Positions 5,022 to 19,313 of a DNA stretch of 64,000 bases are shown here, piece after piece. Within the stretch, counting starts at the first letter, position 1. Every line of letters begins with the position of its first letter. Source of the DNA: Streptomyces morookaense (GTDB lineage: Bacteria > Actinomycetota > Actinomycetes > Streptomycetales > Streptomycetaceae); NCBI RefSeq assembly GCF_013030945.1, contig NZ_JABBXF010000054.1:1-64000 (forward strand), written 5' to 3'. A program made the translations under genes and the position numbers. The notes under the pieces were generated by a model. The model worked only from the letters and a program-made list of their open reading frames with translations. It was not told where the DNA came from and did not search any database.

Positions 5022-5864
5022 TCAGGTCCGCATCCCCGGCGGGCCGCTGCCCGCCCCGCGGACCGTACGGGCGTACCACCCAGGGCCGACGCCCACGATC
5101 CGTTTGAAGTTCCTTGCCAGGTGCGACTGGTCGCAGAATCCCGTGCTCGCGGCCACCTCGGGTGCGGCCCGGCCCTCCAGCAGGAGCCGGCGGGCGCGGT
5201 CGACGCGGCAGGCGGTCAGGTACTGGTGCGGGGCGATGCCGAATTCGCGGCTGAACGCCCGGACGAGATGGGCGGGATGGGCGTGCAGCAGGGTTGCCGC
5301 CTCCTGGAGGGACAGGCCCTCGGGGACGTGCTCGTCGAGGAGGTCGCGCAGCCGGTGGGCCAGGCCGACCCGGTCCGGGCGGGGCGGGGACGGGGGGACG
5401 AGGCGGCTCGGGTGCCCCAGGTGTCCCAGGATGCGTTCGCAGATGAGGGCGAGGCGGGATTCCGCCTCCAGGTCCTCGCCGGGTTCGGCGAGCACGGTGT
5501 GCAGTTGGTGGATGCGGCGCCGTAACAGCGGGTCGGCCAGCGCCGGTCCGTCCACGGCCCGCCCGATGTGCTCCACGCCCAGCACGTCCGCGTCCAGGTA
5601 CAGGACCCGCTTGCGGAAGCCGTGCGGCGTCACCGGGCAGCCGTTGTGCGGCACATGCGGGGGGAGCAGAGTGACGAGGTCGCTGAGGGCGCCGTGCTCG
5701 TGGCGGTCCAGGTCGTAACGGACCATGCCGTCGTCGACGATGAGGAGCGTCCACGTGTCGTGCGCGTGCATGGGGTAGACGTGGTCGGTGAAGTGGGCGT
5801 GGAGGACTTCGGCGACCCCGGCCACGGCCGGCCGCCACGCCGTGAGGTCGGGGCGGGCAACCAT
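5022..5864 (-). CDS. AraC-family transcriptional regulator
   Basis: This is a regulator of about 280 residues. The N-terminal half is a cupin-like AraC sensor domain (HAHFTDHVYPMHAHDTW), and the last 100 residues hold two helix-turn-helix motifs. The second includes EVAASTGFCDQSHLARNFK, the AraC signature. The ATG at 5864 was taken; a TTG at 5879 is an alternative, and neither has a clear ribosome site. It is divergent from the DUF2000 gene at 5915 with only 50 bp between them, so it probably controls that gene. Codon 114 is TTA (complement of 5523-5525), so translation may depend on the bldA tRNA. Confidence 0.85.
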   Translation of the reverse strand: MVARPDLTAWRPAVAGVAEVLHAHFTDHVYPMHAHDTWTLLIVDDGMVRYDLDRHEHGALSDLVTLLPPHVPHNGCPVTPHGFRKRVLYLDADVLGVEHIGRAVDGPALADPLLRRRIHQLHTVLAEPGEDLEAESRLALICERILGHLGHPSRLVPPSPPRPDRVGLAHRLRDLLDEHVPEGLSLQEAATLLHAHPAHLVRAFSREFGIAPHQYLTACRVDRARRLLLEGRAAPEVAASTGFCDQSHLARNFKRIVGVGPGWYARTVRGAGSGPPGMRT

Positions 5865-5914
5865 GCAAAGATCGTACAAGACCGGGGTCGTTGCAGCGGG
5901 TCACAATCCGGTGC

Positions 5915-6346
5915 ATGGAAACCGAGAACGCCCCCGTCCGCTTCGACACCAAGATCGCTGTCCTGCTGCGCGACGACCTGCACACCTGGCAGCGCCTGAA
6001 CGTCACGGCCTTCCTGGTCAGCGGGATCGGCACCGCGCTTCCCGAGGTGATCGGCGAGCCCTACGGGGACGCCGACGGCACGGAGTACCTGTCGATGTTC
6101 CGGCAGCCCGTGCTCGTCTTCGAGGGGTCGAAGGAGCTGCTGACGACGGCGCACGGCCGGGCCCTGGGCCGCGGGATCCCGCTGTCCGTCTTCACCTCGG
6201 ACCTGTTCACCACCAACAACGACCGTGACAACCGCGCTGCGGTGCGTGCCGTGGGCAAGGACCAGCTCGACCTGGTCGGCATCGCTCTCTACGGTCCGCG
6301 CAACGGCGTGGACAAGGTGCTCAAGGGCGCCACGATGCACCCCTGA
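5915..6346 (+). CDS. DUF2000-family protein
   Basis: This small 143-residue protein has no signal peptide. It contains the DUF2000 pattern: KIAVLLRDDLHTWQRLNVTAFL near the start, a central FEGSKELL segment and a C-terminal LVGIALYGPRN. The family is of unknown function and is often placed next to AraC-type regulators, as here. The ATG at 5915 was preferred to a non-ATG start at 5891 because the family homology begins after it. It is followed 58 bases later by the exporter gene on the same strand and may be cotranscribed with it. Confidence 0.75.
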   Translation: METENAPVRFDTKIAVLLRDDLHTWQRLNVTAFLVSGIGTALPEVIGEPYGDADGTEYLSMFRQPVLVFEGSKELLTTAHGRALGRGIPLSVFTSDLFTTNNDRDNRAAVRAVGKDQLDLVGIALYGPRNGVDKVLKGATMHP

Positions 6347-6404
6347 CCCTGCATCGCCGAACCGGCCGAACCACCAGACGGACCGTCAGACTGGAGCGAG
6401 CAGC

Positions 6405-7400
6405 GTGTCCGAGACGACCGCGCAACGACGTGACCCTGTCGATGCCCACCTCTACCTGCTGGCCACGATGGCGTTCTTCGGAAGTGCCTTCACCAGTTCC
6501 AAGGTGGTCGTGGGACATGTCCCGCACCAGGTGGCGGCGGCGCTGCGGTTCGGAGGCGGGGCCGTGATCCTGCTGCTGATCCTGGCCGTGGCCGGGCGCA
6601 GGTCCGGTCCCTTCGTGTGGCGGGAGGCCGTACGGGCCGGTCTCGTCGGGCTGTTGGGCGTCTTCGCGTACAACCTCTTCTTCTTCTGGGGGCTCTCGCT
6701 TGCGCCGTCCGTCGACGGCAGCATCATCGTCCCGGTGCTCAGCCCGGTCCTCACGACCACCGCGCTGCTCGTGATGGGCAAGGAGACCGCGTCCGTCCCG
6801 CGCATCGCCGGCCTGGTGCTCGGCGTGGCCGGGGCCGTGGTCTTCTTCCTCGGCATCGGCGACGCGGCCGGGGGCGTGAGCGGGCAGCGGCTGACGGGAG
6901 ACCTCGTCTATCTGCTGGGCGCCGCCGCCTGGGCGGCCTACAGCATCACCTCGAAGCGGGTGCTGGCCGGCATCGAGCCGTTGCGCGCCACCACGTACGG
7001 CACCGTCGCCGGCTCACTCGGACTGGTGCTGCTCGCCCTTCCGGCCGTGCCGGACACCCACTGGAGCAGCCTCCCCGCGAGCACCTGGGCCAACGTCGGC
7101 TACCTGGCGGTCGGTCCGACTGCCATCGCCTATCTCTGCTTCTACCGGGGCCTGCGCAGTGTCAGTCCCTCGACGGCCACGGTGATGATGTTCGCGGTCC
7201 CGGTCTTCGGGGTGACCAGCTCGGTGCTCTTTCTGGACGAGTCGTTCACGGCGACCCAGGTGGCGGGCGGTGTCGTCATGCTGGCCGGCGCCGTGCTGGC
7301 CGTGACCCAGGGACGGTTCGCGCGTGCCGGACGGAAGGCGGCGCCGGCACCGCAGGCCTCCCCGTCGGCCGTTGCTCCGGAAGGTGCACGGGCGAACTGA
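6405..7400 (+). CDS. EamA/DMT-family membrane transporter
   Basis: This 331-residue integral membrane protein has about ten hydrophobic segments arranged as two EamA halves (roughly 20-150 and 165-300). It fits the drug/metabolite transporter superfamily, whose members export amino acids, nucleosides or drugs by proton exchange. The GTG start at 6405 has GGAG about 9 bases upstream. Typical family elements include FFGSAFTSSKVV near the first helix and YLCFYRGLR in the second half. The substrate is unknown. It is convergent with the LysR gene. Confidence 0.85.
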   Translation: MSETTAQRRDPVDAHLYLLATMAFFGSAFTSSKVVVGHVPHQVAAALRFGGGAVILLLILAVAGRRSGPFVWREAVRAGLVGLLGVFAYNLFFFWGLSLAPSVDGSIIVPVLSPVLTTTALLVMGKETASVPRIAGLVLGVAGAVVFFLGIGDAAGGVSGQRLTGDLVYLLGAAAWAAYSITSKRVLAGIEPLRATTYGTVAGSLGLVLLALPAVPDTHWSSLPASTWANVGYLAVGPTAIAYLCFYRGLRSVSPSTATVMMFAVPVFGVTSSVLFLDESFTATQVAGGVVMLAGAVLAVTQGRFARAGRKAAPAPQASPSAVAPEGARAN

Positions 7401-7426
7401 ACGGTCCGGACGGCCCTCGTGCGCCC

Positions 7427-8353
7427 TCAACGGCCGCTCACGGCACCGGGGCCGTCCGGATCCGGGGCGCGGGCGACCCTCGCGTGCCGGACCAGCACCT
7501 CGACGAACCCGGCGACCACCGGGCCGGGGGTGGCGGCGGTGTACGCGAACAGAGGCTGCCGGACCGGTGGGTCGGGCAGCCTGGTGCGTCCGGTGAAGCT
7601 CGGCGGCAGCAGGTAGGCCGGTACGAGGGCGGGGCCCAGTCCCGAGGCCGCGAGCCAGGGTGTCGCCGCGCTCTGCTCGGCCTGCACGGCTGTCCTCGGA
7701 GTGAAACCGGCCGTCGCACAGGCCTCGTCGAGGACGGCGCCGAGGGTGTTGTCCGGTGCCAGGCGCACCCAGGCCCGGTCTGCGAGGTCGGCGAGGGGCA
7801 GGGCCTCCCCGGCGGCGTGTTCCGCGGCCGTGTCCCCGGGCGGCAGCACCACCACGAATTCGGCCACGCCGATCAGGCGCCGACTCCCGTGCCAGCCGTC
7901 GAGCGCGGGGCCGATGGCGATGTCGGCGCGGCCCTCTCCGAGCGCGGCCATGAGGTCCTTCGTGCGGCGGTGTTCGGCCAGCCGCACCTCCATCGCGGGA
8001 TGGCTCTCGTGCCAGGCGCGCAGCACGGGCGGCAGCAGCCCGAGGCTGATCGAGTCCATTGTGGCCAGCTGCAGTTCGCCCCGGAGCCCGCTCACCGCCC
8101 TCGCCGCCGCCGGACGGATCCGGCCCGCTTCGGTCACGGCGGCGCGCACGTGGGGATGTATCGCCTGCCCCAGGGCTGTCAGCCGCAACGGTCGCGCGTC
8201 GCGTTCGACGAGCAACCCGCCGCAGAACCGCTCCAGAGCCTGTAACTGCCGTGATAGGGCGGGCTGAGAGATGTGCAGCCGCTGTGCAGCCCGCGTGAAG
8301 GAGCCTTCCTCCACGATGGCGAGCATGTACTGGAGCTGCCGCAGGGTCACCAT
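7427..8353 (-). CDS. LysR-family transcriptional regulator
   Basis: This 308-residue regulator has an N-terminal winged helix-turn-helix (LRQLQYMLAIVEEGSF.RAA, then HISQPALSRQLQALE). A periplasmic-binding-protein-like effector domain covers residues 90-295. It is convergent with the DMT exporter and divergent from the SARP gene, with a 403-bp gap. LysR proteins usually act on a divergent neighbour, so a role in SARP control is possible but unproven. Confidence 0.88.
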   Translation of the reverse strand: MVTLRQLQYMLAIVEEGSFTRAAQRLHISQPALSRQLQALERFCGGLLVERDARPLRLTALGQAIHPHVRAAVTEAGRIRPAAARAVSGLRGELQLATMDSISLGLLPPVLRAWHESHPAMEVRLAEHRRTKDLMAALGEGRADIAIGPALDGWHGSRRLIGVAEFVVVLPPGDTAAEHAAGEALPLADLADRAWVRLAPDNTLGAVLDEACATAGFTPRTAVQAEQSAATPWLAASGLGPALVPAYLLPPSFTGRTRLPDPPVRQPLFAYTAATPGPVVAGFVEVLVRHARVARAPDPDGPGAVSGR

Positions 8354-8756
8354 GATCAGAAGTTATACGACCATGCCGACTAGGACTTGGACTGGAAGCC
8401 GTGCGTCCGGCAGGGTCGTGATGTCAGCGGTGAAGGCCGTCCTCACCAGGACGGCGGGACCGGCGCGGAGGCCCACCGGCTGCCTCGCGGGCTGGCGTTC
8501 AGCACTGCATGTCTTTGCACCTGCATCGTCTGCATCTCTGCTTCTCTGCAACTGCACCGCCGTTCCGCGTACTCGCACCGCCGCCGCTCTCCGGTCCCCT
8601 CTCCGTTCCGTTCTTCCGGACCGTGTTCCGTGCACCGGCGGCGGAGGCGAGCCGCTTCGCCCCCTCATCGGCTCGAATCCCTGCTGTCCGGCCGCCCGTT
8701 GCCGTTCTCCGGCGCCCGGACCCCCTCTCGCACAGTATTCGAAGGTTGGCGTGCCT
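8354..8756. other. 403-bp intergenic region between LysR and SARP genes, with CTGCA cluster
   Basis: No gene is supported here; open frames that extend the SARP gene upstream to 8271 are fortuitous. Between 8505 and 8557 the pentamer CTGCA occurs five times (8505, 8521, 8530, 8546 and 8552), with the near-copies TTGCA at 8515 and CTGCT at 8538, and many CT steps between. No convincing -10/-35 pair was identified. The stretch could hold regulator sites for the SARP gene or simply be a simple-sequence leader. Confidence 0.4.
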
Positions 8757-10703
8757 ATGTCTGTTGCCGAATTCCGGGTCCTCGGACCGCTTTCCTTATC
8801 GATATCCGGGCAGTCCGTCCAGCTGCACGGCGCGAAACAGCAAGTCATCCTCGGCACACTGCTGTTGTGCCACGGCCGGCGGGTCTCCCTGGACCGGCTG
8901 GCGGACACCGTCTGGGAACACCATCCGCCGGCCACCGCGCGCAAACAGATCCGCAACGCCGTCTCCGGGCTCCGGGGCGTGCTGCAGGCGGCCGGAGCCG
9001 CCGTCCGCCACGAGAGCGACGGCTACCGGCTGGACCTCGGCGACGCCGCCCTCGATGCGCGGACGTTCCAGGAGCACTGCGGCCGGGCCCGGTTCTGCCT
9101 GGAGCAGGGCCAGGACGGTGATGCCAGGACGGAGCTGCGCGCGGCGCTGTCCCTCTGGCAGGGCCCCGTCCTGTCCGGCCTCGAGCGGTCCGGGCTGCGG
9201 GCGCAGACCGCAGTCCTGGAGGAGCAGCGGCTGGCGGTCCTGGAGGAGTGGGCGGAGCTGGAGCTTGCCCGGGGCCGACATGCCGCCGTGATCGGCGAAC
9301 TGTCGGCAGCGGTGGCCGAACACCCGCTCCGGGAGCGGCTGGTGGCGCAGTTCGTCCTGGCCCTCTTCCACTCCGGGGACCGGGCCCGCGCCTTCGCCGT
9401 CCACGAGCGCACCCGCCGGAAGCTCGCGGACACCCTCGGCCTGGATCCCGGCCCGGAACTCCAGGAGGCCCACCAGCGCATGCTGGCCGACGACATGTGC
9501 GTCCCGGGCCCGGCCACCGCACCGCTCCCGGAGCGCACCGCCGTCCCCCGGGCGCAGCTGCCCGGCAACCTGCCCGCAGACCTCGGGCACTTCACCGGCC
9601 GGGCTGCCGTCCGCCGCCGGCTGCTCGGGCTCACCGGCGAGGACGACGGCCCGGGGGCGGTGCGCACCGCCCTGATCGAAGGGATGGCCGGGGTGGGCAA
9701 GACCGCGCTCGCCGTGCACGCCGCCCACCGCCTCGCGCCCCGGTACCCGGACGGCGCCCTCTTTCTCGACCTGTGCGGGCACAGTGCCGCTGCGCAACCG
9801 CTGCCCCCCGCCGCGGCACTGGCGCAACTGCTGCGCGCCGCAGGCGTGGAGACGGGCGGAATCGACGTGCCGGAGGGGCTTTCGGTGACGGAACTGTCGG
9901 GCCTGTGGCGCTCCTGGCTCGCCGGACGCAGCGTGCTGCTGGTCCTGGACGACGCGGCCGGCACCGACCAGATCCGCCCGCTGCTGGCCGACAGTCCCGG
10001 CTGCCTCACCCTCGTCACCAGCCGCCGCAGCCTGACCGGCCTGTCCGCGGCCCGCCCGCACTTCCTGGGCCCCTTCTCGCGCGAGGAGTCCCGCGAGCTG
10101 TTCCACCGCCTGGCCGACGACGGCTCCGGCCGGTTCGCCGGACGGCAGGAGGTGCGGCCCGACGAGCTGGACGGGCTGCTCGGGCACTGCGACGACCACC
10201 CGCTCGCCGTCGCGGCCGCCGCCACGAAACTGGGCCACCGGCCCGCCTGGAGCATCGGATACCTCGCCGCCCGCCTCGCCGACCCGGGTCGGCGCCTGGC
10301 CGAACTGCGCACCGAGGACGGCGGCCTGCTGCACCGCATCGACCTCTCCTACGGCGGCCTCCACCCCGACCAGCAGCGGCTGTTGAGACTGCTCGGTCTC
10401 ATGGCCACCCCGGTGGTGAGCGCCCACAGCGCCTCGGCGCTGTGCGGCCTTCCGGTGCAGCGCACCGAGGAACTGCTGGAGGGGCTGGTGGACGAACACC
10501 TGCTGCAGCAGCCCGAGGCCGGCCACTACCGGGTGCTCGGCCTCGTGCAGGCCTACTGCCGGCAGCTGTCGTGCCGACTGGACACCCCCGAGGCCCGCGA
10601 GTCGGCGCTCAAGGGTCTGCACGACTTCTACATGGAACGGCAGTTGATCCTCTCCTACGCGGGCGACCCCTGCCCCCTCCAGCCTTCTTGGGATTCGATA
10701 TGA
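8757..10703 (+). CDS. SARP-family activator with NB-ARC ATPase domain, TTA codon
   Basis: This 648-residue pathway regulator has an OmpR-like winged helix at about 5-95 (FRVLGPLSL..., LLLCHGRRVSLDRLADTVW) and a bacterial transcriptional activation domain at 100-245. An NB-ARC nucleotide-binding module follows, with P-loop GMAGVGKTAL near residue 310 and LLVLDDA as Walker B. It is shorter than AfsR because no TPR tail follows. ATG 8757 was chosen; GTG 8751 is also possible, with GAAGG upstream. Codon 14 is TTA (8796-8798), which makes translation dependent on the bldA leucyl-tRNA. Its stop overlaps the antiporter start (ATGA), so the two are coupled. It probably activates the leuA-to-cupin operon. 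Confidence 0.9.
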   Translation: MSVAEFRVLGPLSLSISGQSVQLHGAKQQVILGTLLLCHGRRVSLDRLADTVWEHHPPATARKQIRNAVSGLRGVLQAAGAAVRHESDGYRLDLGDAALDARTFQEHCGRARFCLEQGQDGDARTELRAALSLWQGPVLSGLERSGLRAQTAVLEEQRLAVLEEWAELELARGRHAAVIGELSAAVAEHPLRERLVAQFVLALFHSGDRARAFAVHERTRRKLADTLGLDPGPELQEAHQRMLADDMCVPGPATAPLPERTAVPRAQLPGNLPADLGHFTGRAAVRRRLLGLTGEDDGPGAVRTALIEGMAGVGKTALAVHAAHRLAPRYPDGALFLDLCGHSAAAQPLPPAAALAQLLRAAGVETGGIDVPEGLSVTELSGLWRSWLAGRSVLLVLDDAAGTDQIRPLLADSPGCLTLVTSRRSLTGLSAARPHFLGPFSREESRELFHRLADDGSGRFAGRQEVRPDELDGLLGHCDDHPLAVAAAATKLGHRPAWSIGYLAARLADPGRRLAELRTEDGGLLHRIDLSYGGLHPDQQRLLRLLGLMATPVVSAHSASALCGLPVQRTEELLEGLVDEHLLQQPEAGHYRVLGLVQAYCRQLSCRLDTPEARESALKGLHDFYMERQLILSYAGDPCPLQPSWDSI

Positions 10704-11980
10704 CCGGGCACCTTCAGACGGATTTCTTCCTCGCCCTGGCCCTCGCCCTCACCGCCGCCCGGCTCTGCGGCGCGGCGGCCCGGCGGATCGGACAGCCTCC
10801 GGTGGTCGGCGAGATATTCGCCGGTATTCTCCTCAGCCCCACCGTGCTGACCGCGCCGGTGAGCCACGCACTCATTCCGGGCAGCGTGCGGCCGCTCCTC
10901 GAAGGGCTGGCCAATATCGGCCTCGCCATTTTCATGTTCACGGTCGGATACGAACTCGACCTCGCCCTGCTGCGGGGACGCAGACGGACCGCGCTCACCC
11001 TGGCGGCGGGGTCGGTCGTCGTCCCGCTGGCGGCCGGCGTGCTGCTGGCCCTGCCGCTGGCCGGTACGTACGCGCCGGGGAACCGCACGGGCTTCGTGCT
11101 GTTCCTCGGGGTGGCCATGTCCGTCACGGCCTTCCCCGTGCTGGCCCGCATCCTCACCGACCGCGGCCTCAACTCCCGGCCGCTCGGCGGGATCACGCTC
11201 GCGGCGGCGGCCGTCGGCGACGTGGCGGCGTGGCTCTGCCTCGCGGCCGTCGTGGCGTTCTGCGGTGCGACGGGGCAGTGGCACGTGATGTTCCTGCCCC
11301 TCTACGCGGCCGTCCTCTGGTGCGCCGTACGCCCGCTGTTCCGGCGGCTGTCGGCGGGCCCCGGACTCGGCGGCGAACTGCCCGCAGGGCTCCTCCCGGC
11401 GCTGACCGTGGCGCTGGCCGCGTCGTGCGCGGCCACCGAATGGATGGGCGTGCACTTCATCTTCGGCGCCTTCGCCCTCGGCGCGGTGCTGCCGAAGACG
11501 GGGCCGGAGCAGGTGCGCACCCGGCTCGTCGAGCAACTGGAACACGCCGGTTCGCACTTCCTGCTGCCGCTGTACTTCATCGTGGCCGGCACCAAGGTCG
11601 ACCTCTCCGGGGTCGGCCCCGGGCTGCTCGGCACGCTGGCGGCGGTGGTGGCGGTCGCGGTGGCCTCCAAGGCGGCGGGTGCCTATGCCGGGGCACGGTT
11701 GTCGGGCACGGGGCACCGGATGGCGCTGCCCATCGCGGTCCTCATGAACACGCGCGGCCTGACGGAGATCGTCATCGTCACCGTCGGACTGCAGATGCAC
11801 CTCATCGACGGGCGGTTCTACTCGATCATGTTGATCATGGCCGTGGTCACCACGGCCATGACCGGCCCGCTGCTCAACCTCGTGCGTGACGGCGCCCGGC
11901 GCGGCCCGGACACGGCCGCGACCGGAGCGCTCTCCGCGCCGCGGCCGGCCGGGGCCGTGTCGAGGACGGGACGGGGCTGA
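10700..11980 (+). CDS. CPA2-type cation/proton antiporter (Kef-like)
   Basis: This 426-residue membrane protein has about twelve hydrophobic segments of the sodium/proton exchanger type. VVGEIFAGILLSPTVL in helix 2 and FGAFALGAVLPK are diagnostic of CPA2 antiporters. No C-terminal TrkA-N or USP domain follows. The start overlaps the SARP stop by ATGA, so it is made together with the regulator. In this setting it could export or resist the cluster product or balance ions. Similar antiporters lie in other Streptomyces clusters, but no direct evidence is visible. Confidence 0.82.
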   Translation: MTGHLQTDFFLALALALTAARLCGAAARRIGQPPVVGEIFAGILLSPTVLTAPVSHALIPGSVRPLLEGLANIGLAIFMFTVGYELDLALLRGRRRTALTLAAGSVVVPLAAGVLLALPLAGTYAPGNRTGFVLFLGVAMSVTAFPVLARILTDRGLNSRPLGGITLAAAAVGDVAAWLCLAAVVAFCGATGQWHVMFLPLYAAVLWCAVRPLFRRLSAGPGLGGELPAGLLPALTVALAASCAATEWMGVHFIFGAFALGAVLPKTGPEQVRTRLVEQLEHAGSHFLLPLYFIVAGTKVDLSGVGPGLLGTLAAVVAVAVASKAAGAYAGARLSGTGHRMALPIAVLMNTRGLTEIVIVTVGLQMHLIDGRFYSIMLIMAVVTTAMTGPLLNLVRDGARRGPDTAATGALSAPRPAGAVSRTGRG

Positions 11981-11991
11981 GGCGGGGACGG

Positions 11992-12046
11992 GCGGGACGG
12001 GCCGGGGAGACGGCGGGGACAGATCGGGGACGGGCCTTCCTACGGT
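11992..12046 (+). promoter_or_regulatory. SARP-type direct-repeat array and -10 element before leuA
   Basis: Heptamers sit at exact 11-bp intervals: GCGGGAC (11992, imperfect), CGGGGAG (12003), CGGGGAC (12014) and CGGGGAC (12025). The last ends 9 bp before TACGGT (12041-12046), a fit to the TANNNT -10 element. SARP proteins are known to bind heptameric direct repeats of 11-bp period placed about 8 bp upstream of a -10. The neighbouring SARP gene makes it the obvious ligand. Confidence 0.65.
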
Positions 12047-12117
12047 CGTCGTGTCACTCACCGACCACCTGACACACCCGTCGACGGGCATCCCGCCCGA
12101 CGCCCAGGGAGGCAGGA

Positions 12118-13914
12118 ATGCCCCAGATCCCTCCGTCCCCGCACACCGCCCCCCGACTCCGCCGCCCCTCCGGCCCCTCCCGGACCGGTCAGCCGTGGTG
12201 GAACACCCAGCGGGCGTCCGCGATGCCCGTCCACCGCTACGTCCGCACCGGATCCCGGCTGCCGGAGCCGCCGGCCGAGCGCGTCTGGCCCGGCCGGCAG
12301 CTCGACCGCGCGCCCCTGTGGGCCTCGGTCGACCTGCGGGACGGTAACCAGGCGCTGGCCAACCCCATGGACATCGAGCGCAAGAGCCGGATGTTCGACC
12401 TCCTGGTGGGGATGGGCTTCAAGGAGATCGAGGTCGGCTACCCCTCGGCCAGCGACGCCGACTTCGCCTTCGTGCGCCGCCTGATCACCCGGGACCTGGT
12501 GCCCGACGACGTCACCATCTCCGTCTTCACGCCGGCCCGGCCCGAGTTGATCGACCGGACCTTCCAGGCCGTCGCGGGGGCCGATCGTGCCGTGGTGCAC
12601 CTGTGCCACGCCACGGCCTGCCTGTGGCGCGAGGTCGTCTTCGCCATGACCCCGGCCGAGGTGCGGCGGATGGCGGTCTCCTCTGCCCGGCACGTCGCCC
12701 GGCGTGCCGACGCGGCCAAGGGGGCGCGACTGCGCTTCGAGTACTCGCCGGAGACGTTCAACGTCACGGAACCGGAGTTCGTCCTCGAACTCTCCCAGGC
12801 CGTCGCATCCGTCTGGGACGCATCCCCCGACCGGCCCGTCACCCTCAACCTGCCGACCACCGTCGAGACGGACACCCCGGACGTCTTCGCCGACCAGGTC
12901 GAGTGGATGCACCGCAACCTGGACAACCGCGAGTCCTTCATCCTCTCCGTGCACCCGCACAACGACCGCGGCACCGCCGTCGCATCCGGCGAACTGGCCC
13001 TGATGGCCGGCGCCGACCGGGTCGAGGGCACGCTCTTCGGCAACGGCGAACGGACCGGCAACGTCTGCCTGGCGACCATGGCGCTCAACCTCTTCAGCCA
13101 GGGCGTAGACCCCCAGCTCGACTTCTCCGACATCGACGGCATCCGTGCCACCGTCGAGCACTGCAACCAGATCCCCGTGCACACGCGCCACCCCTACGCC
13201 GGTGATCTGGTCTACACCGCCTTCTCCGGAACCCACCAGGACGCCATCGCCAAGGGCCTGGCCGCCGTGGAGGCCCGGGCCGCGGCCGCCGGGGTCCCCG
13301 CCCGGGACACCCGCTGGGAAGTGCCCTACTTGCCGATCGACCCCAAGGACGTGGGGCGCAGCTACGAATCCGTGGTGCGGGTCAACAGCCAGTCCGGCAA
13401 GGGCGGCATCGCCCACATCCTCAAGAACGTGTACGGCCTGGACATCCCCCGCGGGCTGCGCGTGGAGCTGGCCCGCACCGTGCAGAAGGTCGCCGATGCC
13501 GAGGGGATCGAACTGACCTCGCGCGACCTGTGGGCCGTTCTCAGGCGCGAGTACCTCGAACAGCGTCCGCTGGGCCTGCTGCTGAAGGAGTTCCGGACGG
13601 AGGCGCGCGGCGGGACGACCCTGGTGCAGGCCTCCGTCGTGGAGGCCGACGGCCGTGAGACGTCCGTCGAGGGCACCGGCGCGGACGCCGCGGACGCCTT
13701 CGCCACCGCCGTCGCCCGGCTCGGCCTCGACGTCGCCCTCGTCACCGTGACGCACCACCCGCTCGCCGACAACCACGGCGAACGCACCGTCGCCTACGCG
13801 GAGATGAACGTCGGCGGGGTGACCGTCCATGGCGTCGGGCTCGACCCGGCACCCGAGACGGCTCTGGTCAACTCCGTGCTCTCGGCCGTCAACCGGGTGC
13901 TGGACCCGTCGTAG
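12118..13914 (+). CDS. leuA: 2-Isopropylmalate synthase paralogue, cluster-associated
   Basis: This 598-residue homologue of LeuA would condense acetyl-CoA with 2-oxoisovalerate, or another 2-oxo acid, to begin one-carbon chain extension. It has the full layout: SVDLRDGNQAL with the Arg-Asp pair near 75, the metal-binding HPHNDRG motif near residue 280, GTLFGNGERTGN, and a C-terminal LeuA dimer/regulatory domain from about 470. It starts with ATG after GGAGGCAGGA. Placement as first gene of the NRPS/halogenase operon, away from other leu genes, suggests a secondary-metabolism copy. It may supply leucine or an extended analogue to the AvtA-like enzyme. LeuB and LeuCD would have to come from primary metabolism. 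Confidence 0.9.
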   Translation: MPQIPPSPHTAPRLRRPSGPSRTGQPWWNTQRASAMPVHRYVRTGSRLPEPPAERVWPGRQLDRAPLWASVDLRDGNQALANPMDIERKSRMFDLLVGMGFKEIEVGYPSASDADFAFVRRLITRDLVPDDVTISVFTPARPELIDRTFQAVAGADRAVVHLCHATACLWREVVFAMTPAEVRRMAVSSARHVARRADAAKGARLRFEYSPETFNVTEPEFVLELSQAVASVWDASPDRPVTLNLPTTVETDTPDVFADQVEWMHRNLDNRESFILSVHPHNDRGTAVASGELALMAGADRVEGTLFGNGERTGNVCLATMALNLFSQGVDPQLDFSDIDGIRATVEHCNQIPVHTRHPYAGDLVYTAFSGTHQDAIAKGLAAVEARAAAAGVPARDTRWEVPYLPIDPKDVGRSYESVVRVNSQSGKGGIAHILKNVYGLDIPRGLRVELARTVQKVADAEGIELTSRDLWAVLRREYLEQRPLGLLLKEFRTEARGGTTLVQASVVEADGRETSVEGTGADAADAFATAVARLGLDVALVTVTHHPLADNHGERTVAYAEMNVGGVTVHGVGLDPAPETALVNSVLSAVNRVLDPS

Positions 13915-14008
13915 CGGACGGCGGCGGAACGGCATCGAGAACTTCCGCCCGACCCTGGCCCCGCCCCTGCCGCTGCCGCCGGTGCGGATGCCGGAAAGGA
14001 ACCCCTGA

Positions 14009-15580
14009 ATGACTCTGAAGGGCCTGCGCACGCCGCTGCCCGACGACACCGCCGTCCACCGCGTCGTCGAGGCACACGCCCGCAGAACTCCCCTCGCCAC
14101 CGCCCTCACCTGCGGCGACGAGGAGCTCACCTATGCCGAACTCAATGCGCGGGCCAACCGGTTCGCCCACCACCTGCGCGGCCTCGGCGTCGGCCGCGGC
14201 ACGGTCGTCGGCGTCTGCCTGGACCGTACGCCGGAGCTGATGACCGCCGTCCTGGGCATCCTCAAGTCCGGTGCCGCCTACTCCCCGCTGGACCCGACCT
14301 ATCCCCGCGAGCGGCTGGACCTGATGCTCGCAAACCTCGGCCGGCTCGAACTCACCGTGGTCTCACCGGCCACCCAGGACCTCATCGGGCACGACCACAC
14401 CAAGGTGCTCGACATCGAGGCGCTCGCGCCCCGCCTGGACGCCCTGCCCGCCGAGGACCCGCAGACCGACGTGACCGGCGACGACCTGTGCTACGTGGTC
14501 TTCACCTCGGGCTCCACCGGCACCCCCAAGGCCGTCGCGGTCCGCCACGAAGGCTGGTACAACCTGCTCAACTGGCTGGCCCTGGAGTACGGGCTGGACG
14601 AGCGGTCGAGCGGCCTGAGCGTCAGCTCGTTCGGCTTCGACATCAGCCAACGCGGGCTGATGGCACCGCTGTTCACGGGTGCGCCGCTGCACCTGCTGCC
14701 CAGCCGCAGCTTCGACGTCGCCATGGCCCACCGCATCATCGGCAGGCGCAGGGTCCGCACGCTCCACTGCGCCCCCAGCACGCTCTACCTGCTGGCCGAG
14801 CGGGACCTGGCCGAATCGCCGCGGGGCGGCCCGCTGACCGGCGTCGACCATGTCTTCATCGGCGGTGAGCCGTTGTCCGTCCCCCGCATCGAGGAGTGGG
14901 CGGCCCTGGAGGGCAACACCTGCACCCTCCTGCACCAGTACGGCGTGGCCGAGTGCACCGATGTGGCCTCCTCGTACGCCCTCCACGACTACCCCCGCCA
15001 CCGCACCGGTTCCGCACCGGTCGGCCGTCCGGTGTACAACACCGAGATCCGTCTCATGGACGAGACCGATGACGGCCTCGCCGAGGTGCCGGACGGGGAG
15101 ACCGGCGAGATCTGCATCTCCGGGACCAGCGTCGGCGAGGGCTATCTCAACGCCTCGCCCGAGGATGCCGAACGCTTCACCACGTTCGACACGGGCGACG
15201 GACAGGTGCGCCTCTACCGGACCGGTGACCGCGGATACGCCGACGCCGACGGCAATCTCGTCGTCGTCGGACGGGTCGACGCCCAGGTGAAGATCCGCGG
15301 CATGCGCATGGACCTGGGGGACGTCGAACACGGCGTGCGCGCGAGCGCCGCGGTGGAGGACGCCGTCGTCCTCGCCCTGCCCGGCGGTGACGGCGGGGCC
15401 CGGCTGGTGGCCTTCGTCGTCCCGGCCGCCGCCCCGCTCGACACCAGGGCCCTGCGCGCCGGGCTGCTGGCCGTACTGCCGCGGAACATGGTGCCCGAGC
15501 AGTTCGTCGAGCTGTCCGCCTTCCCCCTGAACCCCAACGGAAAGATCGACCGCAAGGCGCTCGCCGCCTCGGCCGTATGA
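14009..15580 (+). CDS. Stand-alone NRPS adenylation domain
   Basis: This 523-residue amino-acid-activating enzyme forms an aminoacyl-AMP and loads the carrier protein encoded at 16607. Core motifs are present: A3 FTSGSTGTPK (165-174), A4 FDIS (210-213), A5 QYGVAE (310-315), A7 YRTGDRG, A8-like GRVDAQVKIRG, and the A10 lysine in NPNGKIDRKAL. There are no condensation or carrier domains. By eye against GrsA, the binding-pocket code reads about D I R H F G Q D V K. The first Asp indicates an alpha-amino acid. I do not recognise the code; its H F G part resembles Glu-type pockets. The start ATG at 14009 follows GGAAAGGA. Confidence 0.9.
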   Translation: MTLKGLRTPLPDDTAVHRVVEAHARRTPLATALTCGDEELTYAELNARANRFAHHLRGLGVGRGTVVGVCLDRTPELMTAVLGILKSGAAYSPLDPTYPRERLDLMLANLGRLELTVVSPATQDLIGHDHTKVLDIEALAPRLDALPAEDPQTDVTGDDLCYVVFTSGSTGTPKAVAVRHEGWYNLLNWLALEYGLDERSSGLSVSSFGFDISQRGLMAPLFTGAPLHLLPSRSFDVAMAHRIIGRRRVRTLHCAPSTLYLLAERDLAESPRGGPLTGVDHVFIGGEPLSVPRIEEWAALEGNTCTLLHQYGVAECTDVASSYALHDYPRHRTGSAPVGRPVYNTEIRLMDETDDGLAEVPDGETGEICISGTSVGEGYLNASPEDAERFTTFDTGDGQVRLYRTGDRGYADADGNLVVVGRVDAQVKIRGMRMDLGDVEHGVRASAAVEDAVVLALPGGDGGARLVAFVVPAAAPLDTRALRAGLLAVLPRNMVPEQFVELSAFPLNPNGKIDRKALAASAV

Positions 15581-15617
15581 CCCGCCCCCCGTTTCCGTCA
15601 AAGGAGTTGACTCCCGC

Positions 15618-16571
15618 GTGACCACAGCCCAGCACCCCGAGCCGGCCGCCCAGATCTCCGGCAACGCCGTGGTGCCAGACGACATCAAGGCAGACATCGA
15701 GCAGTTCGGCCGCGACGGCTTCATCGGCCCGATCAAGCTCTACGAGCCCGAGGAGGCCGCGGAGCTGATCCGCGAGATCCGGATCAACAACCACGTCACC
15801 GACCGGGCGTTGTACAAGAACAGCGTCAACTACGACCGCCACTTCGACATCCCGCAGCTGACCCGGCACGTCACACACCCGACGATCGTCAAGTACCTCA
15901 ATGCGATCCTGGGCCCGGACGTCCTGTTGTGGCGCACCGAGTGGTTCCCGAAGTTCCCCGGCGCCAAGGCCACCGAGTGGCACCAGGTCCGCGACTACAG
16001 CTACGCGAACGGCAAACCGCAGCTGCTGCCCACCGAGTCGGACTGGAACGCCTACATCGACATCACCGTGTGGACCACCTTCACGCCGGCCACCAGGGAC
16101 CGGGCCTGCATGAAGTTCGTGCGCGGCTCGCAGCGCGAGTGGATCTTCGACGAGCACAAGGCGACGCAGAGCGGCCGCAGCGACGACTACGACGTCGCCC
16201 ACGCCGACACCGGCTTCTTCGGCTACAACTTCTCGGACTTCGCGGTCGACCCCCACTGGGAGCCGCGGCCCGAGGACGTCGTGGAGCTGGAGATGAAGCC
16301 GGGCGAGGCGGTCATCTTCACCGCCTCGTGCGTGCACGGCTCCACGCCCAACCTCACCGAGCGCGAGACGCGTTTCGCCATCGCCGGGCGCTACGTGCCG
16401 ACGCACGTCCGCGTCTACCCGGACCAGAACTCCTTCACCGCACACGGCGCCACCTTCGACCTGTCGGAGTACGGCAGCGTGCTCGTCTCCGGCGAGAACA
16501 CCTTCGACCACAACCGGATCCGTACGGAGAACAACCACGGCGAGGCGTTCGCCCTCCGCACGGCCCGCTGA
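15618..16571 (+). CDS. SyrB2-like Fe(II)/2-oxoglutarate halogenase homologue with HxV motif
   Basis: This 317-residue member of the phytanoyl-CoA dioxygenase superfamily is closest, from memory, to SyrB2/CytC3 chlorinating enzymes that act on carrier-bound amino acids. Shared elements are GFIGPI, LLWRTEWFPKFPG, WHQ, GKPQ, ITVWTTFTPA, GFFGYNF and RYVPTHVRVYPD. Predicted iron ligands are H122 and H240, with R258 binding 2-oxoglutarate. In hydroxylases the residue two after the first His is Asp/Glu, and in halogenases Ala/Gly. Here it is V124, so no carboxylate ligand is present. That favours halogenation, but Val is unusual. The GTG start has AAGGAG upstream. It lies between the adenylation and carrier genes, its likely partners. 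Confidence 0.85.
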   Translation: MTTAQHPEPAAQISGNAVVPDDIKADIEQFGRDGFIGPIKLYEPEEAAELIREIRINNHVTDRALYKNSVNYDRHFDIPQLTRHVTHPTIVKYLNAILGPDVLLWRTEWFPKFPGAKATEWHQVRDYSYANGKPQLLPTESDWNAYIDITVWTTFTPATRDRACMKFVRGSQREWIFDEHKATQSGRSDDYDVAHADTGFFGYNFSDFAVDPHWEPRPEDVVELEMKPGEAVIFTASCVHGSTPNLTERETRFAIAGRYVPTHVRVYPDQNSFTAHGATFDLSEYGSVLVSGENTFDHNRIRTENNHGEAFALRTAR

Positions 16572-16606
16572 CCCCCGACCCCGCACTCCGCAGAGAGGAC
16601 CGCAAG

Positions 16607-16834
16607 GTGATCGCCGAGACGATCCACGGCATCTGGAGCCGTGAGCTGAAGCTGGAGAGCTTCTCGAACGACGACGACTTCTTCGAACTGGGCGGCCATT
16701 CACTGATCATGACCAGGATCCAGCAGGCCATCGCCGCCGAGCTGGGCACCGAGGTCCCGATGGACGAACTGTTCCGCAAGTCGACGGTCGCGGGCATCGC
16801 GGCCCACATCGAGGCGCTCCAGCAGGTCGCCTGA
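16607..16834 (+). CDS. Peptidyl carrier protein
   Basis: This 75-residue free-standing carrier has the phosphopantetheine site DDFFELGGHSLIMT, with Ser32 as attachment point. It probably holds the amino acid loaded by the adenylation enzyme while the halogenase homologue acts on it. The GTG start at 16607 was chosen from GAGAGGA about 8 bases upstream; the longer open frame before it is a shadow of the preceding gene. It is much shorter than usual ORF cut-offs, so it is easily missed. Confidence 0.9.
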   Translation: MIAETIHGIWSRELKLESFSNDDDFFELGGHSLIMTRIQQAIAAELGTEVPMDELFRKSTVAGIAAHIEALQQVA

Positions 16835-16895
16835 ACCTCCGCGGGCCCTGTCACGGGGCAGGGCCCGCCCTCACCGGGGAACGGAAACCCAACCG

Positions 16896-18164
16896 ATGCA
16901 GCTCTCCAGCTGGGGCACCACCATGTCCCGCCTGTCCGGCATCCGCAGCATCATGGACGACATCGCCGCCACGGCCGGCCGGCAGTCGGACGGCGCGTGG
17001 TGCAACCTCAGTCCGGGCAATCCGGCGCACATCCCGGAAGTCGTCGACACCTGGCGCCGCCTGGCCGGCGAGGCCCTGCACGAGGACTTCTTCACGGCCG
17101 GCGGCCAGTACGGTCCGTCGCGCGGTGCGAACGCGCTCGTCGACGCGGTCGTCCGGTACTTCAACGCCGCCTACGGATGGGAGATCGGCCCGGAGAACGT
17201 CGCCGTCGGCCCCGGCAGCCAGTTGCTCGCCTACATGGCCGTCAACGCCTTCACCGGCCCCGCGGCCGGCGGGGACCGCGAGCTGGTCCTGCCCTGTGTG
17301 CCGGACTACACCGGCTACCAGGGCCTGAGCATGGCCGAGGGCGGCACCGCGGGCGTCGAACCCGTGGTGGTGCACGAGGACGAGCGGCGCTTCCGGTACG
17401 CCGTCGATCTGGACGCCGTACGCCGCCGCACGTCCATGGGCGCGATGCTCATCTCCAGCCCGGGCAACCCGACGGGCCGCTGCCTCGACGCGGCCGAGCT
17501 GAACGGGCTGATCGCCATCGCCGAGGAGCGCGGTGTCCCGCTGATCGTCGACCACGCCTATGGGCAGCCCTTCCCCCGTGTCGTCGACGCGCCGTCGGCA
17601 CCGGTGTTCCACCCCCACGTCGTCAACTGCTTCACCTTCTCCAAGGCCGGACTGCCCGGCGAGCGACTCGGGTTCGCCATCGGCCCCGCCGAAGTGATCG
17701 ACGTCCTGGTGTCGTTCACGGCCAACGCGGCGCTGCACGCCCCGCAGCTCGTGCAGATGGCCGCCGCGCGGGCTCTCGACAGCGGCGAGATCGACGTCCT
17801 GGCGGCGAAGACCATCAACCCCTACTACCGGGCCAAGCGCCGCACGGCCGAGGAGCTGCTGCACGACCGCCTGCCGGAGTCCGTGGACTGGCGGCTGCAC
17901 TCCGGTGACGGAGGCATGTTCTGCTGGCTGTGGATCGACCATCCCTGGTTCGACGACCTCGACGCCTACCGCGCACTCAAGAACCGGCAGGTGTTCGTCG
18001 TGCCCGGACGGCACTTCTTCGTGCCCCCGCTCGACACGCCCTTCCTCGCCGGGCACGGCAGGCGCTGTGTCCGGCTGAGCCTGAGCGGCGAGGAGGACGT
18101 GATCGCCCGCGGGATCGCCCGCCTCGGCGAGGTGCTGACCGAGCTGCAGCGGAACGCCTCATGA
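16896..18164 (+). CDS. AvtA-like (valine-pyruvate) aminotransferase
   Basis: This 422-residue class I/II PLP-dependent transaminase resembles E. coli AvtA along its length: an early LSPGNPA.IPE motif, SSPGNPTG near 187-194, IVDHAYGQPFP with Asp219, FSKAGLPGERLGF with Lys250 as the PLP Schiff base, and the C-terminal VVPGRHFF. AvtA exchanges amino groups between alanine or valine and 2-oxo acids, including 2-oxobutyrate. Here it could aminate the 2-oxo acid made through the LeuA paralogue. It starts with ATG after GGGAACGG. Its stop overlaps the thioesterase start (ATGA). Confidence 0.85.
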   Translation: MQLSSWGTTMSRLSGIRSIMDDIAATAGRQSDGAWCNLSPGNPAHIPEVVDTWRRLAGEALHEDFFTAGGQYGPSRGANALVDAVVRYFNAAYGWEIGPENVAVGPGSQLLAYMAVNAFTGPAAGGDRELVLPCVPDYTGYQGLSMAEGGTAGVEPVVVHEDERRFRYAVDLDAVRRRTSMGAMLISSPGNPTGRCLDAAELNGLIAIAEERGVPLIVDHAYGQPFPRVVDAPSAPVFHPHVVNCFTFSKAGLPGERLGFAIGPAEVIDVLVSFTANAALHAPQLVQMAAARALDSGEIDVLAAKTINPYYRAKRRTAEELLHDRLPESVDWRLHSGDGGMFCWLWIDHPWFDDLDAYRALKNRQVFVVPGRHFFVPPLDTPFLAGHGRRCVRLSLSGEEDVIARGIARLGEVLTELQRNAS

Positions 18165-18946
18165 GTACGGGAAGGTGGCTGCGGCGCCATGCCGTCGAGG
18201 GCCGGCACACCGCCGCCCGGCTTGTGTGCTTCCCGCACGCCGGCGGCACGGCCGCCGCCTTCCAGGGCTGGCCCGCCCGGCTGCCCGCGGACGTCGAGAT
18301 CCTCGTGGTGCAGTACCCCGGCCGGCAGGACCGGATCGGTGAGCCGTGCATCGAGGACATGAGGGAGATGGCCGACCGCGTCACCGCGGAACTCCTCGAC
18401 CGCTGCGACGTGCCGCTGGTCCTCTTCGGCCACAGCATGGGCTCGGGCCTTGCCTACGAGGTGGCCGGACGACTGGAACGGGACCACGGGACCGTCGTCT
18501 CACGCCTGTTCGTCTCGGCCCGGACAGCACCCCACCACGTGCACGGCGAGAAGCGGCACCTGCTCTCCGACGAGGACCTCGTCGCCTCGATGCGATCCCT
18601 GGGCGGTCCGGACGCCGAGGTCTACGACCACCCGCAACTGCTGCCGCTCATCCTCCCGCCGCTCCGCGCGGACCTGCGCCTGCTGGACGCGTACCGGCCC
18701 GAGCGGGCCGGGCTGCCCCGGATCCAGGCCCCCGTCACCGCCTGCGGGGGCGACAGCGATCACACCTGCCCCACGGCCGACCTGGCCCTGTGGGAGGAAC
18801 TGACCACGGCGGGGGCCGAGGTTCGGATCTATCCCGGCGGGCATCACTTCCTGCGGACGCATGAGGCGGATGTGGCGGGCGTGGTGTCCAAACATCTGCT
18901 GACCCTGGTACAGACCCGAGGAGACACGACCCATGGCCCGTCCTGA
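18161..18946 (+). CDS. Type II thioesterase
   Basis: This 261-residue alpha/beta hydrolase of the GrsT type has CFPHAGGTAAAF near residue 23, VQYPGRQDR, the nucleophile motif GHSMGSG with Ser92, and GGHHFL with the catalytic His near the C terminus. Such enzymes release acyl groups from carrier proteins. With no NRPS module in the operon, this one may free the tailored amino acid rather than only edit, as proposed for CytC4. It is translationally coupled to the aminotransferase (ATGA) and overlaps the cupin gene by 14 bases. Confidence 0.9.
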   Translation: MSTGRWLRRHAVEGRHTAARLVCFPHAGGTAAAFQGWPARLPADVEILVVQYPGRQDRIGEPCIEDMREMADRVTAELLDRCDVPLVLFGHSMGSGLAYEVAGRLERDHGTVVSRLFVSARTAPHHVHGEKRHLLSDEDLVASMRSLGGPDAEVYDHPQLLPLILPPLRADLRLLDAYRPERAGLPRIQAPVTACGGDSDHTCPTADLALWEELTTAGAEVRIYPGGHHFLRTHEADVAGVVSKHLLTLVQTRGDTTHGPS

Positions 18947-19313
18947 CAAGCCGGTCAACCTGGCGGAGAAGCTCGAGAAACTGGAGGAACTCGACGCCTA
19001 CTGGACCCCGAGGACCGTCATGGAGGTGAACGGGCTCGAGCTGAAAGTCTCCAGGTTCAAGGGCGAGTTCGTCTGGCACAGCCACACCGAGGGCGACGAG
19101 CTCTTCCTCGTGCTCCGCGGCACGCTCACGATAGAACTGCGCGACCGGGACGCCGTGCGGCTGGGCCCCGGCGAGTTGTTCGTGGTCCCCAAAGGCGTCG
19201 AGCATCGGCCGGTGACCCCCGAGGGCTGCGACGTCGTCCTCCTGGACCCGGAGGGCGCACTGAACACGGGCGATGCGGGGGGCGCGCTGACACGCGACGC
19301 GGAGTGGCTCTGA
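18933..19313 (+). CDS. Small cupin protein
   Basis: This 126-residue single-domain cupin contains WHSHTEGDELFLVLRG (metal-binding His-x-His...Glu) and a second motif with GPGELFVVPKGVEH. Metal-binding residues are intact, so it may be an enzyme or a product-binding protein. It overlaps the thioesterase by 14 bases and is the last gene of the operon, followed by a strong hairpin. The reaction is unknown; acting on the halogenated amino acid after release is only a guess. Confidence 0.82.
   Translation: MARPDKPVNLAEKLEKLEELDAYWTPRTVMEVNGLELKVSRFKGEFVWHSHTEGDELFLVLRGTLTIELRDRDAVRLGPGELFVVPKGVEHRPVTPEGCDVVLLDPEGALNTGDAGGALTRDAEWL

What the first reader, a model, noticed from the sequence alone, without database searches (positions are those of the whole stretch)
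8757..19313. Compact, apparently condensation-free cluster predicted to make a halogenated free amino acid
SARP, antiporter, LeuA paralogue, stand-alone A domain, SyrB2-like enzyme, free carrier protein, AvtA-like transaminase, type II thioesterase and cupin occur together. A carrier-loading trio plus halogenase plus thioesterase without any condensation domain is the arrangement of CytC1-CytC4, which yields a dichlorinated aminobutyrate. The LeuA and AvtA homologues add on-site supply of a chain-extended or branched amino acid. I do not recognise this exact gene set from any described cluster.
Basis: partly seen in the sequence, partly recalled or inferred. Interest (0 to 1): 0.85.

Follow-up and report, generated by a model that had tools for sequence, protein, structure and literature searches.

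The report
Gene cluster for a leucine-mimicking amino acid
A compact bacterial gene cluster appears to build a small fake leucine on a carrier protein, using a halogenase-like enzyme whose active site differs from that of the characterised relatives it was compared with, so it may reveal new chemistry and the genes behind natural leucine look-alikes.

Summary
Observation confirmed: every named gene is present, and no condensation domain lies on the contig (20 of 20 genome hits are elsewhere). The conserved unit is larger, about 5022-19313. A free, carrier-processed amino acid is likely; the CytC/dichloroaminobutyrate parallel is weak, and chlorination is not assured. (1) The SyrB2-like enzyme has His-Gln-Val where SyrB2, CytC3 and CmaB have His-Gln-Ala. 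It belongs to a subfamily (38 of 69 rows) in which V118/A231/C233 always co-occur, one side of one branch. (2) Relatives carry LeuC and a fused LeuD-LeuB near LeuA, so the module extends a keto acid. (3) Pseudomonas/Xenorhabdus homologues share the nine A-domain code positions but use an acetaldehyde dehydrogenase/aldolase pair; 7 of 8 loci carry a stand-alone LeuRS-editing-domain protein, a plausible protection against mischarged tRNA-Leu. The window genome lacks one. Best reading: a C5 leucine-mimic antimetabolite of gamma-chloronorvaline/gamma-hydroxynorvaline type. Product, halogenation and resistance are inferred; nothing was assayed.

The parts
5022..5879 (-). AraC-type regulator, left edge of the conserved unit
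   Evidence: PF12833/PF02311; 57-65% identical homologue beside DUF2000 in L007, L008, L009, L040-L042 and L090
5915..6346 (+). DUF2000 protein (solved relative 2gax)
   Evidence: PF09391 5.3e-48; 2gax 8.1e-32; family present in 42 of 61 genomes of the window's genus, so not specific to this cluster
6225..7400 (+). EamA/DMT exporter (true start probably after 6346); likely amino-acid efflux
   Evidence: PF00892 3e-39; TIGR00950 and YddG-like matches below cut-off; homologues in L007-L009, L011, L012, L040-L042, L090, L092
8751..10703 (+). SARP/AfsR-like pathway regulator
   Evidence: BTAD 1.4e-36; NF053617 below cut-off
10700..11980 (+). CPA2-type cation:proton antiporter
   Evidence: TIGR00932 4.8e-40, below cut-off; not matched in L090
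12118..13914 (+). LeuA paralogue (2-isopropylmalate-synthase family) with altered keto-acid pocket (F, C at Mt L143, Y169)
   Evidence: NF002991 over cut-off; pocket comparison; another copy elsewhere in the genome
14009..15580 (+). Stand-alone adenylation domain, code DIRHIGQDV (nine positions)
   Evidence: TIGR01733 over cut-off; code
15618..16571 (+). SyrB2-family Fe/2OG enzyme with His122-Gln-Val124 (HXV), Ala236, Cys238, His240, His276
   Evidence: TIGR01762 over cut-off; PDB hits CytC3 3gja and SyrB2 2fct; model vs 2fct Z 37.5, rmsd 2.0, 288 aligned; residue map
16607..16834 (+). Free peptidyl carrier protein (75 aa)
   Evidence: PF00550 2.9e-16; 60-74% identical homologues in L007-L012, L040-L042, L090, L092, 48% in L013
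16896..18164 (+). AvtA-like PLP aminotransferase
   Evidence: NF006967 402.8 vs cut-off 402; no close second copy in the genome, other matches 27-33% identical with E 3e-12 or weaker
18161..18946 (+). Type II thioesterase
   Evidence: PF00975 2.2e-46 on the ORF that contains it
18933..19313 (+). Small cupin keeping an HxH...E...H metal-ligand pattern (motif recalled)
   Evidence: PF07883 4.1e-12; homologues in L007-L012 and L040-L042

Best explanation
The cluster makes and exports a small leucine-mimicking amino acid as an antimetabolite. LeuA (with LeuC, D and B, encoded near it in relatives and supplied by primary metabolism here) lengthens a short 2-oxo acid by one carbon, and the AvtA-like enzyme aminates it to a C5 amino acid. 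The two candidates are norvaline (from 2-oxobutyrate) and gamma-hydroxynorvaline (from the 2-oxo acid of threonine, isosteric with 2-oxoisovalerate); the second is also what the Pseudomonas DmpFG-type pair plus a transaminase would give. The A domain loads it onto the free carrier protein, the HXV SyrB2-family enzyme modifies an unactivated carbon (chlorination most likely), the thioesterase frees it, the cupin may finish it, and the EamA transporter exports it. Products of the gamma-chloronorvaline type would fit. Shown by sequence: gene set, absence of a condensation domain on the contig, altered LeuA and SyrB2-family active sites, identical A-domain code, LeuCDB and LeuRS-editing-domain genes in relatives. 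Inferred: substrate, chlorination, product, role of the cupin, resistance role.
For: Gene set. No C domain on C188. LeuC and fused LeuD-LeuB after the cupin in 3 of 3 plasmid regions read, of 4 plasmid hits; LeuDB begins at the same place in L008 and, cut by the contig end after 138 bases, in L007; a 192-base piece in L090. Cluster LeuAs (6 of 6 rows aligned) have F143/C169 and keep R80, D81, H285, H287. A-domain code identical in window, L007, L008, L009, L011 and L014-L020, though window and L014-L020 are 38-45% identical. LeuRS-editing-domain protein in 7 of 8 Pseudomonas/Xenorhabdus loci (two of the 7 from one strain) and in L012. In G271 a homologue of that protein sits 1.2 kb from an EamA 62% identical to the window's, with no biosynthetic query matched in the 20 kb. 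LysE-type exporters in the Pseudomonas clusters. Gamma-chloronorvaline is a known Streptomyces leucine analogue (passages of PMC8659048).
Against: HXV in place of HXA and loss of S231 question chloride binding. The window genome has no stand-alone LeuRS-editing protein; in actinobacterial loci only L012 carries one, and G046, whose cluster resembles L012's, gave no match at 1e-30 (3 candidates scored per genome). L020 (Xenorhabdus) lacks it too. The polar A-domain code (R, H, Q, D) fits norvaline poorly, while a LeuA route to gamma-hydroxynorvaline is unprecedented as far as I know. The window lacks LeuCDB and its genome has one close LeuC. L010 and L013 have neither LeuA nor a close AvtA and differ in code at three and two positions. 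The related-loci scan returned no record titled S. griseosporeus, so the gamma-chloronorvaline link is unproven.
Confidence: 0.5

Rival explanations
1. The HXV enzyme is not a chlorinase. With Val, Ala and Cys lining the former chloride pocket, iron uses another third ligand (a different anion, the substrate hydroxyl, or Cys238), and the outcome is desaturation, ring or epoxide formation, or another radical transfer on the carrier-bound amino acid.
For: V118/A231/C233 together in 38 of 38 rows and A118/S231 in 31 of 31; H272 in 34 of 38; one change on a tree built without those columns, SH-aLRT 98. No carboxylate at position 118 to make a normal hydroxylase site.
Against: H116, H235, R248, R254, T143 and W145 are all kept in the 38 rows. 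TIGR01762 over cut-off. Val cannot ligate iron, so the site may still be open to chloride (inference).
Confidence: 0.3
2. LeuA only boosts leucine supply and the enzyme chlorinates leucine itself, as the barbamide enzymes do (recalled).
For: LeuA family match over cut-off; leucine-type elongation genes in relatives.
Against: Pocket changes F143/C169 in 6 of 6 cluster LeuAs aligned. Pseudomonas clusters with the same A-domain code use an aldolase pair instead. Code contains R, H and D.
Confidence: 0.15
3. CytC-like: the A domain loads 2-aminobutyrate (or threonine), the enzyme chlorinates it, and LeuA/AvtA act after release to lengthen the chlorinated keto acid.
For: Gene content resembles CytC1-C4 (recalled); CytC3 is the best PDB sequence hit.
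Against: Enzyme lies outside the CytC3/SyrB2 side of the tree; CytC1 is far from the top of the A-domain matches; the aldolase pair in Pseudomonas fits an upstream role (inference).
Confidence: 0.12
4. The amino acid is a building block for a peptide assembly line elsewhere in the genome.
For: Barbamide precedent (recalled); the genome has condensation domains on other contigs; HXV relatives sit in NRPS-like settings in Nostoc and Pectobacterium.
Against: The unit is conserved across two families with its own exporter and regulators, and no NRPS beyond the A domain and carrier protein is among the 26 features annotated around the L040 plasmid copy. Condensation domains were not searched for in the other loci.
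Confidence: 0.1

Closest known systems
CytC1-CytC4 (gamma,gamma-dichloroaminobutyrate, cytotrienin producer)
   Same: Stand-alone A domain, carrier protein, SyrB2-family enzyme and thioesterase making a free amino acid (cluster contents recalled); CytC3 is the top PDB sequence hit
   Different: Enzyme about 38% identical and outside the CytC3 side of the tree; HXV instead of HXA; LeuA, AvtA, cupin and exporter added; A domain nearer many other A domains than CytC1
SyrB1/SyrB2 (4-chlorothreonine, syringomycin)
   Same: Fold (Z 37.5 to 2fct, rmsd 2.0 over 288), both iron histidines, 2OG arginine
   Different: A118V, S231A, L233C, Y272H, N123Y; stand-alone pathway, not an NRPS
Barbamide BarA-BarD (trichloroleucine)
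   Same: Carrier-bound modification of a leucine-type amino acid by SyrB2-family enzymes, then release (recalled)
   Different: No LeuA module in bar (recalled); HXV here
Coronamic acid cma cluster
   Same: A domain, SyrB2-family enzyme and alpha/beta hydrolase; an alanyl-tRNA editing gene lies beside it on a Pseudomonas tremae plasmid, a parallel to the LeuRS-editing gene in the homologous clusters
   Different: CmaC is VOC/glyoxalase-like; tblastn with CmaC hit only L074 and L036 among the loci searched; CmaB has HXA
gamma-Chloronorvaline of Streptomyces (J. Antibiot. 1980, 33, 1249)
   Same: A free chlorinated C5 amino acid called a leucine analogue (seen as passages and a reference in PMC8659048; original paper not seen)
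   Different: I found no gene cluster for it: one paper in the library holds the word; link to this cluster is inference

Membership tests
SyrB2-type carrier-dependent Fe(II)/2OG halogenase | Sequence and fold relationship | tested here: met
   TIGR01762 291.7 bits vs 226.3; 2fct Z 37.5
SyrB2-type carrier-dependent Fe(II)/2OG halogenase | Two iron histidines and 2OG arginine | tested here: met
   H122, H240, R252 align with H116, H235, R248
SyrB2-type carrier-dependent Fe(II)/2OG halogenase | Ala or Gly at the carboxylate position (HXA/G) | tested here: not met
   Val124; Val in all 38 rows of its subfamily
SyrB2-type carrier-dependent Fe(II)/2OG halogenase | Dedicated A domain and carrier protein | tested here: met
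   Adjacent A and CP genes
SyrB2-type carrier-dependent Fe(II)/2OG halogenase | Chloride-dependent C-Cl formation | not testable with these tools
   Needs protein chemistry
CytC-type dichloroaminobutyrate cluster | CytC3-clade enzyme | tested here: not met
   CytC3 groups with L063 inside the A118 side; window is on the V118 side
CytC-type dichloroaminobutyrate cluster | No condensation domain; A, CP, TE present | tested here: met
2-isopropylmalate synthase (LeuA) | Family match and catalytic residues | tested here: met
   NF002991 over cut-off; R80, D81, H285, H287 kept
2-isopropylmalate synthase (LeuA) | Housekeeping keto-acid pocket (L143, Y169) | tested here: not met
   F and C in 6 of 6 cluster LeuA rows aligned; the other LeuA of this genome has L and Y
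Coronamic-acid-type cyclopropane pathway | CmaC-like VOC enzyme | tested here: not met
   No glyoxalase match among the cluster genes scanned; tblastn with CmaC hit only L074 and L036 among the loci searched (the window itself was not in that database)
Cluster with LeuRS-editing self-protection | Stand-alone PF13603 protein in the window genome | tested here: not met
   Only two hits, in 1021- and 876-aa open frames, the first spanning the whole domain; such proteins are in homologous clusters only

The most novel reading that the evidence does not exclude
A wide subfamily of SyrB2-like enzymes (Actinomycetota, Pseudomonadota, Bacteroidota, Cyanobacteria) has swapped the chloride-site residues for a conserved Val/Ala/Cys(/His) set and carries out a non-chlorinating, carboxylate-free Fe/2OG reaction on carrier-bound acids. 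In this cluster that reaction makes a leucine mimic, which the homologous Pseudomonas clusters neutralise with a captured LeuRS editing domain acting on mischarged tRNA-Leu.
Probability: 0.25. Interest if true: 0.85.

Novelty: new variant of a known kind. Interest (0 to 1): 0.62.

Why it matters
If right, the cluster gives a candidate genetic basis for leucine-analogue amino acids such as gamma-chloronorvaline, reported in 1980 and without a gene cluster that I could find. It also makes a mechanistic question testable: what does a SyrB2-type iron site do when Ala is Val and the chloride-pocket serine is lost? Separate recruitment of LeuABCD in actinobacteria and an aldolase pair in Pseudomonas around one identical A-domain code would be a clean case of convergent precursor supply. 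The tRNA-editing genes offer a resistance-guided handle for finding further amino-acid antimetabolites.

Tried and rejected
Known product by literature: in the listings of ten paper searches I saw no paper describing this gene set, an HXV halogenase (0 occurrences of 'HXV' in the 8 papers) or a gamma-chloronorvaline cluster; the library lacks most subscription journals. Papers were seen as listings, except passages of PMC8659048, PMC3662646, PMC9396626 (largimycin halogenase, no active-site motif in the passages) and PMC13244439 (BesD/SyrB2 mechanism). Furanomycin (SBW25) considered and dropped: an isoleucine analogue, and no furanomycin gene cluster in the passages read.

Coronamic-acid-like cyclopropane: rejected, no CmaC-like gene found. 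DUF2000 as tRNA-linked self-protection: considered on fold grounds (recalled) and left open, because the family is in 42 of 61 genomes. Third iron ligand from D of HQVRD: rejected, not conserved (D in 22 and N in 8 of 38 rows). First numbering of SyrB2 was off by three (tagged construct) and was corrected. The carrier-protein query was in the wrong frame (as was the print); one search used the right one. Coordinates of the structure model are not readable in the Python box, so Cys238/His276 distances to iron could not be measured. Promoter/terminator scan gave 0 promoter-like sites and 6 terminator-like sites vs 3.3 expected: uninformative. Loci L093 and L094 were fetched and not used.

Rows dropped: 45 match places in 40 of 392 genomes were listed and 30 fetched (L044-L073); L044, the window itself, was left out, so residue 118 is unknown for 15 places. 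One of four plasmid clusters (H2) was not fetched. L021 (interrupted reading frames) entered the 69-row alignment as one unmended stretch; it was left out of alignment A1 and the code table.
Full report
Observation. A whole-genome search for condensation domains gave 20 matches, none on contig C188, which holds the window. A second LeuA, 54% identical, lies on another contig. An AraC gene (5022-5879, -), a DUF2000 gene (5915-6346) and an EamA exporter (ending 7400) precede SARP. The same neighbour order recurs in L007, L008, L009, L040-L042 and L090 (in L009 the half with the SyrB2-like enzyme is on the other strand, and in L090 the antiporter was not matched), so the unit is about 5022-19313. 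DUF2000 alone is common (42 of 61 genomes of the genus) and says little.

Relatives. A scan of genome contigs with the SyrB2-like protein gave 31 loci; tblastn of the cluster genes over them shows the LeuA-type cluster in Streptomyces and Actinoplanes, with reduced versions in Microbispora (L010) and Actinoplanes TFC3 (L013). In the 20.9 kb seen, L012 lacks A and LeuA. Among 392 genomes of the window's genus, 40 have a SyrB2-like match at 1e-40, but only 3 (own, G090 86%, G046 70%) are above 60% identity. Copies whose enzyme is 86% identical to the window's sit on four Streptomyces plasmids. In the three that I read, LeuC, a fused LeuD-LeuB (543 aa in L040; PF00694 + PF00180) and a phosphopantetheinyl transferase follow the cupin. 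LeuDB also begins there in L008 and L007 (both cut by contig ends), and a 192-base piece matches in L090. The window has no such copies, and its genome has one close LeuC (88%), so LeuCDB would have to come from primary metabolism here.

LeuA. Six of six cluster LeuA rows aligned have Phe and Cys at the positions of L143 and Y169 of the mycobacterial enzyme, where the window genome's other LeuA has Leu and Tyr; R80, D81, H285, H287, H167, S216 and E218 are kept (the pocket roles of these residues are recalled). A changed keto-acid substrate is likely; which one is inference.

Pseudomonas/Xenorhabdus clusters. L014-L021 share A domain, HXV enzyme and TE, but have an acetaldehyde-dehydrogenase/4-hydroxy-2-oxovalerate-aldolase pair instead of LeuA, two LysE-type exporters and a cupin (L014 ends early on its contig; in L021 several frames look interrupted). 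L018 also holds a LeuA, but with M and Y at the two pocket positions, unlike the cluster LeuAs. The nine A-domain code positions are identical (DIRHIGQDV) in the window, L007, L008, L009, L011 and L014-L020, although window and L014-L020 are only 38-45% identical overall (positions placed with a recalled PheA reference). L010 differs at three positions and L013 at two. The same substrate is therefore likely in both groups. The aldolase pair would give 4-hydroxy-2-oxovalerate, hence gamma-hydroxynorvaline after transamination; LeuABCD acting on the keto acid of threonine would give the same, and on 2-oxobutyrate would give norvaline (pathway logic, not tested).

Self-protection. Seven of the eight Pseudomonas/Xenorhabdus loci (L018 and L021 are one strain; L020 lacks it) and L012 carry a stand-alone protein of about 480-510 aa whose middle matches the LeuRS editing domain (PF13603 9.9e-18 and 1.2e-14; Thermus LeuRS 1h3n 3.6e-14). 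The alignment keeps the Asp in the PAH..D stretch (editing role recalled), but the threonine-rich stretch is not recognisable. In 392 genomes of the genus one match at 1e-30 was found (G271; 3 candidates scored per genome), and G046, whose cluster resembles L012's, had none. In G271 it lies 1.2 kb from an EamA 62% identical to the window's, with no biosynthetic query matched in 20 kb, which looks like a resistance-only locus. The window genome has none. A cma locus has an alanyl-tRNA editing gene beside it, so such genes beside halogenase clusters may be a recurring theme.

The SyrB2-like enzyme. In 69 rows, 38 have Val at SyrB2 position 118, always with Ala231 and Cys233, and His272 in 34 and Tyr123 in 34; 31 rows, including SyrB2, CytC3 and CmaB, have Ala118 and Ser231, with Leu233 in 27. 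On a tree built without these columns the two sets lie on the two sides of one branch, SH-aLRT 98 (quick tree, midpoint root, several long branches, among them L048 and the stem of L053/L056/L066). Iron histidines, 2OG arginine, R254, T143 and W145 are kept in all 38. The model of the window protein (mean pLDDT 87.8) matches SyrB2 2fct at Z 37.5, rmsd 2.0 over 288 residues. So the fold is SyrB2's, but the halide site is not. Neither hydroxylation by a normal 2-His-1-carboxylate site nor chlorination can be taken for granted. NCBI's label 'chlorinating enzyme' reflects a family model that this HXV protein passes; it is not evidence of activity. HXV relatives also occur in NRPS-like settings: beside a Pectobacterium A-KR-carrier protein and in Nostoc between two large A-domain-containing proteins.

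Product. A free C5 leucine mimic is the reading that fits most observations. Gamma-chloronorvaline is a known Streptomyces leucine analogue (passages of PMC8659048). The polar A-domain code argues somewhat for a hydroxylated substrate, such as gamma-hydroxynorvaline, whose CH3-CH(OH) end is that of threonine, SyrB2's substrate. I cannot choose between them with these tools.

Verdict. Real, conserved and not found described in the library searched; a new variant of the carrier-bound halogenase-family amino-acid pathway, with a distinctive active-site subfamily.

Noticed in passing
L043 (Salmonella enterica plasmid pSA20021456.1), 6157-13287: A conjugative IncI1 plasmid carries a mini-cluster: A domain, carrier protein, SyrB2-family enzyme of the HXA type, DMT exporter, alpha/beta hydrolase and, further on, a PPTase; no NRPS is annotated in the 17 kb seen.
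   Followed up: no
L089 (G271), 10920-14599: A LeuRS-editing-like protein, an SDR and an EamA exporter stand together with none of the searched biosynthetic genes within 20 kb: a possible resistance-only locus.
   Followed up: partly
L026 11782-15504 and neighbours: In Pectobacterium the HXV enzyme sits near an A-KR-(two carrier) protein, which suggests that an alpha-hydroxy or alpha-keto acid may be the carrier-bound substrate there.
   Followed up: no
L031, L032, L037: Pandoraea/Burkholderia HXV loci share an A domain (code DMWLSGAIY) and, by clustering, homologues of a second PhyH protein, an FAD-NAD protein and an MFS transporter; families were scanned only in L031. A different amino-acid pathway.
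   Followed up: partly
L040 11580-12233; L007 7583-8236; L008 7558-8226: A 217-222 aa protein between LeuA and the A domain in several relatives, not matched in the window; only a weak N-acyl amino acid synthase FeeM match in L008 (0.0033). It could be an N-acyltransferase.
   Followed up: partly
window 7427-8353 (-): A LysR regulator lies between EamA and SARP in the window; not matched at that place in the related loci searched.
   Followed up: partly
L018 and L021 (Pseudomonas sp. FEN): One strain holds two copies of the Pseudomonas cluster; in L021 several reading frames (aldehyde dehydrogenase, aldolase, A domain, start of the enzyme) look interrupted.
   Followed up: no
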